Source: Streptomyces vietnamensis (GTDB lineage: Bacteria > Actinomycetota > Actinomycetes > Streptomycetales > Streptomycetaceae). Taken from it: a stretch of 64,000 nucleotides of DNA. The notes below the pieces were generated by a model, which saw nothing but the letters and a program-made list of their open reading frames with translations, did not search any database and was not told the origin of the DNA. Shown piece by piece: positions 722 to 45,276 of this stretch; position 1 is the first letter of the stretch; each line of letters opens with the position of its first letter. Location: contig NZ_CP010407.1 in NCBI RefSeq assembly GCF_000830005.1, positions 5,708,001 through 5,772,000 on the forward strand, read 5' to 3'. The position numbers and the translations under genes were made by a program.

Positions 722-2113
722 ATGAGCCGTTCCGCCCACCCCGCCGGGCCCCGCCACGCCGATGTTCTTCCCGAGGGGCACTACTCCGCTCCGCCCGCCG
801 ACCTCAACACCCTCGATCCGAAGGTGTGGGCCCGGACCGTCGGGCGCGACGAGCGCGGGGTCGTCACCGTCGGCGGTCTCGGTGTCGACGCCCTCGCCGA
901 GGAGTTCGGCACGCCCGCCTACTTCCTCGACGAGACCGACTTCCGCGCGCGCTGCCGCGCCTGGGCCGAGGCCTTCGGCAAGGACGCCGACGTCTTCTAC
1001 GCCGGCAAGGCCTTCCTCTCACGGGCCGTCGTGCGGTGGCTCAAGGAGGAGGGGCTCAATCTCGATGTCTGCTCCGGAGGGGAGCTGAGCACCGCGCTCT
1101 CCGCCGGGATGCCCGCCGAGCGCATCGCCTTCCACGGGAACAACAAGAGCGAAGAAGAGATTCGTCGGGCCGTCGAGGTCGGGGTCGGGCGGATCGTGCT
1201 CGACTCCTTCCAGGAGATCGTCCGGGTCGCCCACATCGCCCAGTCCCTCGGCAAGCGGCAGCGCGTGCAGATCCGGGTGACCGTCGGCGTCGAGGCCCAC
1301 ACGCACGAGTTCATCGCCACCGCCCACGAGGACCAGAAGTTCGGCATCGCCCTCGCCGGCGGGCAGGCCGCCGAGGCCGTGCGGCGGGCGCTCAAGCTCG
1401 ACGGGCTCGAGCTCATCGGCATCCACTCCCACATCGGGTCGCAGATCTTCGACATGGCCGGGTTCGAGGTGTCCGCCCGGCGCGTCGTCCAGCTGCTCGC
1501 CGAGGTGCGCGACGAGCACGGGGTCGAGCTGCCCGAGATCGATCTCGGGGGTGGGCTCGGCATCGCGTACACCTCCGAGGACGACCCCCGCGAGCCGCAC
1601 GAGATCGCCAAGGCCCTGAGTGAGATCGTGACGAGGGAGTGCGAGGCCGCCGGGCTGCGGACCCCTCGTATCTCCGTCGAGCCCGGGCGCGCCATCGTCG
1701 GCCCCACCGCCTTCACCCTCTACCGCGTCGGCACCGTCAAGCCCCTCGAAGGGCTGCGGACGTACGTGAGCGTCGACGGCGGCATGTCGGACAACATCCG
1801 CACCGCCCTCTACGACGCCGAGTACAGCGTCAGCCTCGTCTCGCGGACCAGCGAGGCCGAGCCGATGCTCTCCCGCGTCGTCGGCAAGCACTGCGAGAGC
1901 GGCGACATCGTCGTACGGGACGCCTTCCTGCCCTCGGACCTGGCGCCCGGCGACCTCATCGCCGTGCCGGCCACCGGCGCGTACTGCCGCTCCATGGCCA
2001 GCAACTACAACCACGCGCTCCGGCCGCCCGTCGTCGCCGTCCGCGACGGCGAGGCGCGGGTCATCGTCCGGCGCGAGACGGAGGAAGATCTCCTGCGTCT
2101 CGACGTCGGATGA
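722..2113 (+). CDS. lysA: Diaminopimelate decarboxylase
   Basis: Final step of lysine biosynthesis: PLP-dependent decarboxylation of meso-diaminopimelate to L-lysine in the cytoplasm. The 463-residue protein is an alanine-racemase-fold type III PLP enzyme. The Schiff-base lysine is Lys96 in VFYAGKAF, HIGSQ and the glycine-rich GGGLG loop bind cofactor phosphate, and Cys391 in CESGD is the active-site Cys contributed across the dimer. The N-terminus has about 30 extra residues, usual for actinomycete LysA. ATG 722 lies 12 bp after nrtL, and an 11-bp stem terminator follows the gene, so nrtL-lysA looks like a unit separate from hom. Confidence 0.97.
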   Translation: MSRSAHPAGPRHADVLPEGHYSAPPADLNTLDPKVWARTVGRDERGVVTVGGLGVDALAEEFGTPAYFLDETDFRARCRAWAEAFGKDADVFYAGKAFLSRAVVRWLKEEGLNLDVCSGGELSTALSAGMPAERIAFHGNNKSEEEIRRAVEVGVGRIVLDSFQEIVRVAHIAQSLGKRQRVQIRVTVGVEAHTHEFIATAHEDQKFGIALAGGQAAEAVRRALKLDGLELIGIHSHIGSQIFDMAGFEVSARRVVQLLAEVRDEHGVELPEIDLGGGLGIAYTSEDDPREPHEIAKALSEIVTRECEAAGLRTPRISVEPGRAIVGPTAFTLYRVGTVKPLEGLRTYVSVDGGMSDNIRTALYDAEYSVSLVSRTSEAEPMLSRVVGKHCESGDIVVRDAFLPSDLAPGDLIAVPATGAYCRSMASNYNHALRPPVVAVRDGEARVIVRRETEEDLLRLDVG

Positions 2114-2136
2114 TGAAATAGTCGAGTGATGAAATA
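2105..2136 (+). repeat. 16-bp tandem duplication across the lysA stop codon
   Basis: Two adjacent 16-bp units, 2105-2120 and 2121-2136, match at 14 positions. The first unit contains the lysA stop TGA (2111-2113) and the second repeats it. One of several duplications of stop regions in this window. Confidence 0.85.
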
Positions 2137-2149
2137 GATGTCTCAAAAT

Positions 2150-2178
2150 CCGGACGAGGGGCGGAATCCCTCGTCCGG
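2150..2178 (+). terminator. lysA terminator hairpin
   Basis: Perfect 11-bp inverted repeat CCGGACGAGGG / CCCTCGTCCGG with a 7-nt loop, 37 bp after the lysA stop. There is no U-tract, as is common in Streptomyces. Confidence 0.8.
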
Positions 2179-2195
2179 TGAGTGAGACTGGTTCT

Positions 2196-43019: not shown

Positions 43020-43862
43020 TCACACGTCCCGGCTGTTCAGCAGGGCGTACGCGCCGCCCAGGGCCGCCGCCGCGACGGCGGCCATGATCAGCAGCGCCTC
43101 CCAGCCCGCCGGGCCGGAGTCGCCGAACTGCGGGGCGTCGTTGTAGAGCGCGATCATCTGCGAGGGGATCGCGTAGGTGAACAGGAACTTCTGCACCGAC
43201 TGCAGCGCCTCGGCCATCATGAACATGCCCGCCACCAGCGGCAGCAGCAGCAGACCGATCATCACCGTGATCGCGCCGGCCGAGTGCCGGATGACCGTCC
43301 CCACCGCGAGCGAGAGCAGCCCGAGCAGGGCCAGGTAGGCGCCCGCGCCGACCGTCGCCCGCAGCCACTCGCCGGTCGTCGGCGTCGCCGCCGTGTCCAC
43401 GAGGGCGACCTGCGCCATCGCCACCAGGGTCGCCATCACCGTGGTGACCGAGAAGACCAGCAGGAAGAAGACGATCGCCTTCGCCGTCAGCACCCGGGCC
43501 CGGCTCGGGCAGGCCGTCAGGGTCGTACGGATCATGCCCGTGCCGTACTCGGAGGCGATCGTCAGGACGCCGAGCGTGATCACGCAGATCGACGCCGGCA
43601 GCATCCCGAAGAAGCCGAAGGCGAGCGCGGACTGCCCGCCCATCTCGACGTCGGCGCCCGAGGCGATGGCCGCGACGCCCAGGCCGATGGCGAGCATCAG
43701 CAGGATCATCACCCCGAGCGTCCACATCGTCGAACGCACCGAGCGGATCTTCGTCCACTCGGAGGCGAGCGCGTCACCGAGGTGCGCGGCGCGGACCGGG
43801 ATGGGGGAGACGTAGGAGTACGGCGCCGAGGCCGGGGCCTGGTGGTGGGCGGGGGCGGTCAT
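43020..43862 (-). CDS. ABC-2 family transporter permease (first copy)
   Basis: 280 residues, six membrane segments after a cytoplasmic start containing the typical ALASEWTKIRSVRSTMWTL motif. Residues ITLGVLTIASEYGTGMIRTTL match bacteriocin/antibiotic-resistance-type permeases. Its ATG overlaps the stop of the ATPase gene (ATGA), so the two are translated together. It is paralogous to the permease at 45.3-46.0 kb (SEWTKIRTVSSTVWTL, GTEYSSGMIRTSL). Confidence 0.9.
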   Translation of the reverse strand: MTAPAHHQAPASAPYSYVSPIPVRAAHLGDALASEWTKIRSVRSTMWTLGVMILLMLAIGLGVAAIASGADVEMGGQSALAFGFFGMLPASICVITLGVLTIASEYGTGMIRTTLTACPSRARVLTAKAIVFFLLVFSVTTVMATLVAMAQVALVDTAATPTTGEWLRATVGAGAYLALLGLLSLAVGTVIRHSAGAITVMIGLLLLPLVAGMFMMAEALQSVQKFLFTYAIPSQMIALYNDAPQFGDSGPAGWEALLIMAAVAAAALGGAYALLNSRDV

Positions 43863-45070
43863 CGGGCGTCCTTGGTGGTGTCGCTCGGCTGCGGGAGGCT
43901 CGGCTGCGGGGCGGCCGGAGGGGCGTACGGACCGGGGGCGGCGGCCGGCGGGGCGTACGGCGCCGGCGCGGCGGCCGGAGGGGCGTACGGGGCCGGCGCC
44001 GCGGCCTGCGGACCGCCGGCGTACGGGTTCTGTCCGGGCGGCGGCGGGGCGTACCAGCCCTCCTGCGGCACGTCCTGGACCGGCGGCTGCGGCGGCATCC
44101 CGTACCCCGGCTGCCCCGGCTGCGCGGGCGGCTGGAGGTGGACGAGGCGGTCGTCGGTGGAGCGGTAGTCCACGGCGCCCTGCGTCAGCCGCATGTACGC
44201 CTCCTCGAGCGAGGCCTGGTGCGGGGACAGCTCCCAGAGCCGTACGTCCGCGCCGTGCGCCAGGTCGCTGATCCGCGGCAGGGGCAGGCCCGTGACGCGC
44301 AGCGCCCCGTCCGGCTCGGACAGCACCTGGCCGCCGGCCTCCATCAGCACCGACGTCAGCTTCTCCCGCTGCGCCGGCTCGGTGCCCGGGGTCCGCACCC
44401 GGGCGAAGTCGGCGGAGTTCGCCGAGATGAAGTCCTTCACCGGCATGTCGGCGAGCAGCTGCCCCCGGCCGATCACGATCAGGTGGTCGGCCGTCAGCGC
44501 CATCTCGCTCATGAGGTGGCTGGAGACGAAGACCGTGCGGCCCTCGGAGGCCAGCTTCTTCATCAGGTTCCGCACCCAGAGGATGCCCTCGGGGTCCAGG
44601 CCGTTGACGGGCTCGTCGAAGAGCAGCACCTGCGGGTCGCCGAGGAGGGCCGCCGCGATGCCGAGGCGCTGGCCCATGCCGAGCGAGAAGCCCTTCGAGC
44701 GCCGCTTGGCGACGTCCTGGAGGCCGACCACGCCGAGGACCTCGTCGACGCGCTGGGCCGGGATGCCGGCCAGCTGGGCGAGCGACAGCAGATGGCTGCG
44801 CGCGCTCCGGCCGCCGTGCACGGCCTTGGCGTCGAGGAGCGCGCCGACCTGGCGGGGGGCGTTCGGCAGCTGCCGGAAGGGGTGGCCGCCGATCGTGACG
44901 TGGCCCGCGGTGGGCCGGTCGAGCCCGAGGATCATGCGCATCGTCGTCGACTTGCCGGATCCGTTGGGCCCCAGGAAGCCGGTGACGACACCGGGCCTCA
45001 CCTGGAAGGAAAGGTTGTACACGGCCGTCTTGGCGCCGTAGCGCTTCGTCAGGCCGACTGCCTCGATCAT
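43859..45070 (-). CDS. ABC transporter ATPase with Pro/Ala/Tyr-rich tail (first copy)
   Basis: 403 residues. ATPase core: Walker A GPNGSGKSTT (about 34-43), signature FSLGMGQRLGIA, Walker B LLFDEPVNGLDPEG. After the usual C-terminal domain (about residue 300) comes a tail of about 90 residues with repeats of the kind APYAPPAAAP, absent from the second paralogue. ATG 45070 (MIEAVGLTKRYG) is chosen over an upstream in-frame start. Its paired permease follows. Confidence 0.9.
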   Translation of the reverse strand: MIEAVGLTKRYGAKTAVYNLSFQVRPGVVTGFLGPNGSGKSTTMRMILGLDRPTAGHVTIGGHPFRQLPNAPRQVGALLDAKAVHGGRSARSHLLSLAQLAGIPAQRVDEVLGVVGLQDVAKRRSKGFSLGMGQRLGIAAALLGDPQVLLFDEPVNGLDPEGILWVRNLMKKLASEGRTVFVSSHLMSEMALTADHLIVIGRGQLLADMPVKDFISANSADFARVRTPGTEPAQREKLTSVLMEAGGQVLSEPDGALRVTGLPLPRISDLAHGADVRLWELSPHQASLEEAYMRLTQGAVDYRSTDDRLVHLQPPAQPGQPGYGMPPQPPVQDVPQEGWYAPPPPGQNPYAGGPQAAAPAPYAPPAAAPAPYAPPAAAPGPYAPPAAPQPSLPQPSDTTKDAR

Positions 45071-45203
45071 TCTCCAGCCCCATCGACAGGTCGGTCGCAT
45101 CCATGTCGGGGCGTGGCGGCCTGTGGCCGGAGCCCCCCGTATGAGCTAGGAGCTTATCCAGGCGTTGACGGTTCCGGCCAAGCTCGGGGAATCACGGGAG
45201 GGG

Positions 45204-45276
45204 AATCAGGCGCCCACAGTCGGGCGTCCCGCAGCCGGGCGTCCCGCGATCAGGCGCCCGCGATCAGGCGTCCCGC
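45204..45276 (-). repeat. Five 14/15-bp tandem units over the permease stop
   Basis: Units at 45262-45276, 45248-45261, 45233-45247, 45218-45232 and 45204-45217, on the minus strand variants of GCGGGACGCCTGATC. The first contains the permease stop TGA; two others repeat CCTGAT. Confidence 0.85.

What the first reader, a model, noticed from the sequence alone, without database searches (positions are those of the whole stretch)
2105..45276. Stop-codon regions duplicated at about ten gene ends
The last bases of lysA, thrC, rho, the LCP gene, prfA, the TetR/desulfurase pair and an ABC permease are repeated in tandem (periods 16, 18, 10, 21, 26, 41 and 14-15 bp), and three more genes have a displaced second tail. 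The repeat sequences differ from gene to gene, so this is not one repeat family but a tendency for 3-prime ends to be copied. Each repeat redisplays a stop codon. Possible causes are replication slippage at hairpins next to stops, or repair at transcription-termination sites; a benefit as backup stops is conceivable. I know of no description of this pattern in Streptomyces.
Basis: partly seen in the sequence, partly recalled or inferred. Interest (0 to 1): 0.72.

Follow-up and report, generated by a model that had tools for sequence, protein, structure and literature searches.

The report
Gene-end tandem copies, mostly passengers
Short stretches around gene stop signals really are copied in tandem in this Streptomyces chromosome, mostly because the DNA just after a gene tolerates such copying, but one gene end belongs to a separate family in which a folded element is followed by a copy of the gene's own tail.

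Summary
Seven of 61 window stops carry stop-straddling tandem repeats. In 1.66 Mb sampled from this genome, 45 of 1130 stops but 4 of 1134 starts are straddled; shuffles of the first sample give 0-1. Stops themselves add little. Array starts peak about -20 to +20 around the stop and fall off downstream, as ordinary indels do. In held-out stretches straddlers match the neutral expectation (13 observed, 14.7 expected). Units show no reading-frame bias and stop triplets decay like their neighbours, so backup stops are not supported. Close relatives lack most copies and carry unrelated ones at the same ends. E. coli and Shinella have almost none. Best reading: frequent short tandem duplication, tolerated just after genes.

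One displaced tail (gene 12822-13469) is different. Its tail copy follows an ~85-nt covarying element E, found in 44 of 150 Streptomyces genomes and in none of 71 other genera. Of 32 E contexts just after a stop, 26 are followed by a copy of that gene's tail, starting exactly after GA in 17. I found no description of E; its mechanism is open.

The parts
2105..2137 (+). lysA end: 16-bp unit x2 across the stop (stop ends 2113)
   Evidence: same array in G062 and G015, three units in G063, one unit in G041
4610..4677 (+). thrC end: 18-bp unit x3.8 across the stop
   Evidence: own unit (up to 4 mismatches) absent from 7 of 7 relatives compared
8325..8344 (+). rho end: exact 10-bp duplication GACTGACGCG
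   Evidence: single copy in G062, L002, L018, L020
9631..9672 (+). LCP end: 21-bp unit x2
   Evidence: own unit (up to 5 mismatches) absent from 8 of 8 relatives compared
11181..11260 (+). prfA end: 26-bp unit x3
   Evidence: one copy in G062, G063, G064 and two in G061, read by eye from the sequences (the unit count printed found only 1 in own and 0 elsewhere)
32620..32786 (.). TetR / cysteine desulfurase convergent ends: 41-bp unit x4.1 showing both stops
   Evidence: absent after the TetR orthologue in 4 of 4 relatives compared
45204..45276 (-). ABC-2 permease end: 14/15-bp units
   Evidence: relative G066 has an unrelated 22-bp array at the same end
13411..13469 (+). tail T of the LMW phosphotyrosine phosphatase-like gene 12822-13469
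13491..13578 (+). structured element E, beginning 21 nt after the stop
13579..13637 (+). tail copy T', joined to the 3' end of E; its six codon differences from T are all synonymous
13638..13658 (+). remnant resembling the last ~21 nt of E, after T' (read by eye)
   Evidence: sequence

Best explanation
The seven window repeats are short tandem duplications that arise often in the non-coding DNA of this Streptomyces lineage. They survive where they do no harm. A duplication across a stop leaves the first copy, and so the protein, unchanged, and the first ~40 bp after a stop are the least constrained DNA around a gene. Extra stop codons are passengers. Of clean two-copy duplications 25 of 43 have 0-2 bp of flanking homology and the rest 3 bp or more, so no single slippage pathway explains all; Ku-dependent joining is not required. 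Shown: enrichment, neutral expectation met in held-out data, lack of frame bias or stop retention, recurrence with new units in relatives. Inferred: the mutational origin and the role of selection. The displaced tail at gene 12822-13469 is separate and belongs to element E.
For: Left-boundary rates per kb around stops, all own data: -20..-10 2.7; -10..-2 3.5; -2..10 4.0; 10..20 3.2; 20..40 1.75; 40..300 about 0.7-1.3. Around starts, -30..+10: 0-0.6. All indels >=3 bp against four relatives follow a similar curve: 3.7 per 100 bp at 0-10, 1.9 at 10-20, 1.1 at 20-40, 0.5-1.0 beyond. Replication set 13 observed, 14.7 expected. Straddlers are rare where the next gene is close: 0 of 229 overlapping, 3 of 202 at 0-20 bp, 14 of 224 at 60-100 bp, lengths taken with the array collapsed. 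Unrelated units at the same end in other species: prfA p9, 12, 17, 25, 26; thrC p11, 13, 28; lcp p18, 23, 32. Homology at junctions. Arrays per kb of intergenic DNA: own 1.54, 20 other Streptomyces 1.15, other Actinobacteria 0.79, Nonomuraea 0.67, Shinella 0.05, E. coli 0.04.
Against: In all own data straddlers still exceed the neutral expectation (43 against 32.1, p 0.04), driven by the set that holds the window (395 stops: 31 observed; expectation 14.9 after correcting a tenfold slip in that script). In convergent regions, where no promoter is at stake, the rate near the stop (~5/kb) is still above the interior (1.2-2.2/kb from 40 bp on). Slower decay of a copy anchored in coding sequence could explain this but was not tested. 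The aligner tends to put gaps where unalignable sequence begins, which inflates the 0-10 bp indel bin. A published Streptomyces mutation-accumulation study saw only 1-4 bp indels in wild type (PMC11109965, passages), so the process was not caught directly.
Confidence: 0.72

Rival explanations
1. Selection for backup stop codons: copies are kept because they catch readthrough ribosomes.
For: 35 of 44 second copies still show a stop triplet; an in-frame second stop within 10 codons is commoner after straddled genes (35% of 43 against 13% of 699).
Against: Period mod 3 is unbiased (16/11/16). The stop triplet decays at the same rate as the rest of the unit (0.091 against 0.086, p 0.87). Stop codon choice looks like that of other genes (not tested formally).
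Confidence: 0.05
2. A mutational hot spot at transcript ends (hairpin slippage, R-loops or termination zones) makes duplications near stops.
For: Rate peak within about 20 bp of stops, also in convergent regions. Raw folding energy stronger at straddled ends (-39.2 against -33.8, with a rough collapse of the array).
Against: Composition-controlled fold z-scores do not differ (p 0.72). Ordinary indels peak in the same place. The held-out set shows no excess.
Confidence: 0.17
3. Fill-in and end joining of staggered breaks by the Ku/LigD pathway.
For: 25 of 43 exact two-copy duplications have 0-2 bp homology.
Against: No Ku match in this genome. Array density is 0.88/kb in 10 loci from genomes with no Ku match or only a remnant and 1.22/kb in 40 Ku-bearing ones (some of these genomes are drafts).
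Confidence: 0.03
4. Chance matches in GC-rich, low-complexity DNA.
For: GC about 71%.
Against: Shuffles that keep dinucleotides give 0-1 straddlers against 38. Starts in the same genome are depleted, and Shinella (66% GC) has almost none.
Confidence: 0.01

Closest known systems
Bacterial tandem repeats / VNTRs (prokaryote satellites, PMC6749651, passages read)
   Same: Head-to-tail units, unique per locus, variable copy number between relatives; a table row that I read as 38 satellites lists S. coelicolor
   Different: Arrays here are mostly of short units in few copies and placed around stops; the passages I read stress coding amino-acid repeats and do not mention stop codons (0 occurrences)
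Borg tandem repeats (PMC9879509, passages read)
   Different: Borg repeats are perfect, A-enriched and often inside ORFs; here often imperfect, GC-rich and at gene ends
Repeated stem-loop families at gene 3' ends, such as REP, Bor, Ype, Efa (PMC1590033, passages read)
   Same: E is a dispersed structured repeat concentrated just after stops
   Different: E has an almost fixed 3' junction and is often followed by a copy of its host gene's tail; no such copy appeared in the passages I read
Diversity-generating retroelement VR/TR geometry (recalled)
   Same: Gene tail, a structured stretch after the stop, then a near-identical tail copy downstream
   Different: No reverse transcriptase match in this genome and no adenine-specific differences

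Membership tests
Tandem duplication / VNTR | head-to-tail copies of one unit | tested here: met
Tandem duplication / VNTR | copy number differs between relatives | tested here: met
   prfA 1, 2, 3 copies (by eye); rho 1 against 2; lysA 1-3
Backup (tandem) stop codons | second stop in frame more often than by duplication alone | tested here: not met
   period mod 3 of 16/11/16
Diversity-generating retroelement (for E) | reverse transcriptase in the genome | tested here: not met
   RVT_1: no match in G000 nor in 5 others of 13 E-bearing genomes tested (G061, G238, G253, G262, G298); 7 of the 13 and 6 of 12 E-less genomes do have one
Diversity-generating retroelement (for E) | differences confined to adenines of the template copy | tested here: not met
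   window T/T': six synonymous differences, one at an adenine of T' by eye (sequence)
TnpB/omega-RNA guided element (for E) | TnpB-type nuclease present | tested here: inconclusive
   PF07282 present in own genome (7 matches) but no match in 3 of 13 E-bearing genomes (G015, G298, G018)
TnpB/omega-RNA guided element (for E) | short motif 5' of the target, structured RNA 5' of the guide-like copy | tested here: met
   GA exactly at the boundary in 17 of 26, background 7.4%; covarying structure. A resemblance only
Known Rfam RNA (for E) | match to a curated model | tested here: not met
   10 E loci, E-value up to 1: two hits, both outside E and far below their gathering scores
REP / RAYT palindromes (for E) | Y1-type HUH transposase partner | not tested
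   no search run for PF01797

The most novel reading that the evidence does not exclude
E is an undescribed, Streptomyces-restricted family of non-autonomous structured elements, folded as RNA on the gene's strand. It attaches by a fixed 3' end (..GGGY) to a site just after GA. Where that site lies inside a gene's tail, the inserted or duplicated unit carries the gene's own tail, so the protein is kept. Different GA sites in one gene and arrays such as three units plus a diverged final tail (L294) would be repeated rounds of this.
Probability: 0.4. Interest if true: 0.82.

Novelty: new variant of a known kind. Interest (0 to 1): 0.52.

Why it matters
It gives a measured answer to whether gene ends are special: the repeats are real and common in Streptomyces, but they mark tolerated DNA rather than a stop-codon function. 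Their roughly 20- to 40-fold excess over E. coli and Shinella makes the mutational process testable. The E family, if confirmed, would be a repeat whose spread copies part of its host gene, with a clear junction rule that can be tested in the laboratory.

Tried and rejected
Backup stops, hairpin slippage and Ku joining were tested as above. The dinucleotide before short exact duplications with no homology was scattered (GA in 1 of 24), so the GA rule of E does not extend to them. A donor-import reading of T (T' being the native tail) was tested on the window gene's orthologues: of 11 genomes with T', T and T' resembled each other more than any other species' tail in 7, tied in 2 (L010, L023) and less in 2 (own, L024) (counted by eye, second loci of the same genome left out). 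So import does not explain most cases, and the excess of synonymous differences (29 against 18, 10 of the 18 from one misaligned locus, L249, one gapped locus left out; plus 6:1 and 2:0 for L294 and L295) stays unexplained. Rfam gave nothing. Ten paper searches (one search was about transcript ends) listed no paper whose title or abstract start describes stop-straddling tandem repeats or E; most subscription papers are not held. The expected value printed is ten times too large (bases were counted, not stops). My gene finder recovered only 8 of 11 E. coli stops checked. Of the 48 motif contexts, 16 had no stop of the same strand within 90 nt: by my reading 4 are false motif matches, 5 are second tandem copies and 7 lie farther from a stop or beside a convergent gene, as do the three G253 loci L291-L293, which show no tail copy.
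Full report
Setting. The window is G000:C1:5708001-5772000 of a 9.15-Mb genome whose relatives are Streptomyces. I called genes with my own codon-usage script (61 in the window, 735 in 862 kb; 682 more in the replication set) and detected tandem repeats as lagged matches of period 7-60.

Is it there? Yes. Seven of 61 window stops have arrays that begin 6-13 bp before the end of the stop codon and run past it. 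In the first own-genome sample 38 of 573 stops and 6 of 593 starts were straddled, and five shuffles gave 0-1 each. With the replication stretches, 45 of 1130 stops and 4 of 1134 starts. A broader definition gives 57 of 1126 and 8 of 1130. The wider fact is that intergenic DNA here is full of such arrays (7.3% of bases against 0.2% in shuffles): most after stops, least near starts, 12.9% in convergent, 7.0% in tandem and 4.1% in divergent regions.

Are stops special? Hardly. If duplications start anywhere at a uniform rate and only those that spoil coding sequence are lost, the number straddling a stop follows from the rate just downstream. In the replication set (347 stops) the expectation is 14.7 and I saw 13; in all data (742 stops) 32.1 and 43 (p 0.04); the set containing the window supplied the excess. 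Array starts peak from about -20 to +20 and decline; indels of any kind against four close relatives decline in a similar way, as does the mismatch rate, less steeply. Periods show no preference for multiples of three, and stop triplets in the copies are no better preserved than their neighbours.

How do they arise? Orthologous ends show the events. The rho end has an exact 10-bp insertion absent from G062, L002, L018 and L020. By eye, prfA has one copy in G062, G063 and G064, two in G061 and three here. The thrC and LCP units were not found in the 7 and 8 relatives compared. The same ends carry unrelated arrays in other species, so the process recurs. Forty-three exact two-copy duplications show 0, 1 or 2 bp of flanking homology in 14, 7 and 4 cases and 3 bp or more in 18, where chance without homology would give about three of the latter: a mixture. 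No Ku was found in this genome and density does not follow Ku. The density is far higher than in E. coli and Shinella and varies among Actinobacteria; why is unknown.

A different kind of gene end. The gene 12822-13469 (LMW phosphotyrosine phosphatase-like) has its last 59 bp repeated 168 bp downstream. Between them lies an ~85-nt segment, E. It is dispersed: 5 own hits, 1-23 hits in 44 of 150 Streptomyces genomes. It was not found in six genomes of other genera, and in a draw of 118 genomes of the class from 72 genera only this genome matched; seven other Streptomyces in that draw did not. Both surveys score few candidates per genome, so counts are lower bounds. E sits at this same gene region in 12 of 80 sister loci. 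The alignment of 34 copies supports 20 base pairs: 93.5% of cells paired, 62 cells changed on both sides against 22.8 in shuffles. U-G pairs suggest RNA of the gene's strand, though the folding energy of the window copy is not unusual for its composition (z -0.95 sense, +0.70 antisense). Hits that built the model match by construction, so the genus survey is the mostly independent part.

Anatomy of E. Of 48 motif contexts 32 lie after a stop of the same strand; in 29 of these the core motif begins 25-47 nt after the stop, E itself about 15 nt earlier. In 26 of the 32 the gene's own tail follows E, in 6 it does not. The copy begins right after GA in the gene in 17 of 26 (7.4% expected) and within 4 nt of GA in 24 of 26 (33% expected), and joins E at an almost fixed point. 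Several of the 26 are the same site in orthologues, so the number of independent sites is about 17 by my count. The period differs by gene, for example 191, 213, 139, 183. In G262 the same phosphatase gene carries three near-identical units and a diverged final tail joined at a different GA; a second gene, whose encoded tail suggests a ketosynthase (by eye), carries three units and a final tail. In three G253 loci E lies beside a convergent gene and has no tail copy. At the window gene the second unit appears to have lost most of E, leaving about 21 nt (by eye). L009 has E directly followed by downstream sequence and its relative L017 has two units, which fits tandem duplication of tail plus E. 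The excess of synonymous differences between tail and copy is not explained by that alone. No TnpB match was found in 3 of 13 E-bearing genomes and no reverse transcriptase in 6 of 13, own included, so neither is shown to move E.

Literature. I read passages of PMC9879509, PMC6749651, PMC11109965, PMC1590033 and PMC8269248; for all other papers only search listings. None of these passages describes E; [quoted passage not shown]

Noticed in passing
window 13491-13637; G000:C1:1786396-1786557, 2694301-2694370, 2804491-2804574: Dispersed structured element E with gene-tail copies; one own site has two E copies in tandem (period 77) and no tail copy found.
   Followed up: partly
G262:C1:3351836-3352832 and G298:C1:5474221-5474675: Further regularly spaced E arrays (six hits about 182 apart, three about 185 apart) seen as model hits only.
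   Followed up: no
G000 genome: No Ku match, although 30 of 30 Streptomyces G handles tested have one; 10 of 50 genomes behind named loci also lack it or keep a remnant. In G015 Ku lies about 8 kb before rho, just outside the orthologous window start.
   Followed up: partly
window 2195-2232: A second, separate 16-bp tandem array between lysA and hom, shared with G062, G015 and G066.
   Followed up: no
window 49204-50185: Large 207-240-bp repeats inside the long reverse-strand gene 48181-52905.
   Followed up: no
L294, L295: Final tail copies differ from the gene tail mostly by synonymous changes, as if they had once been coding.
   Followed up: partly
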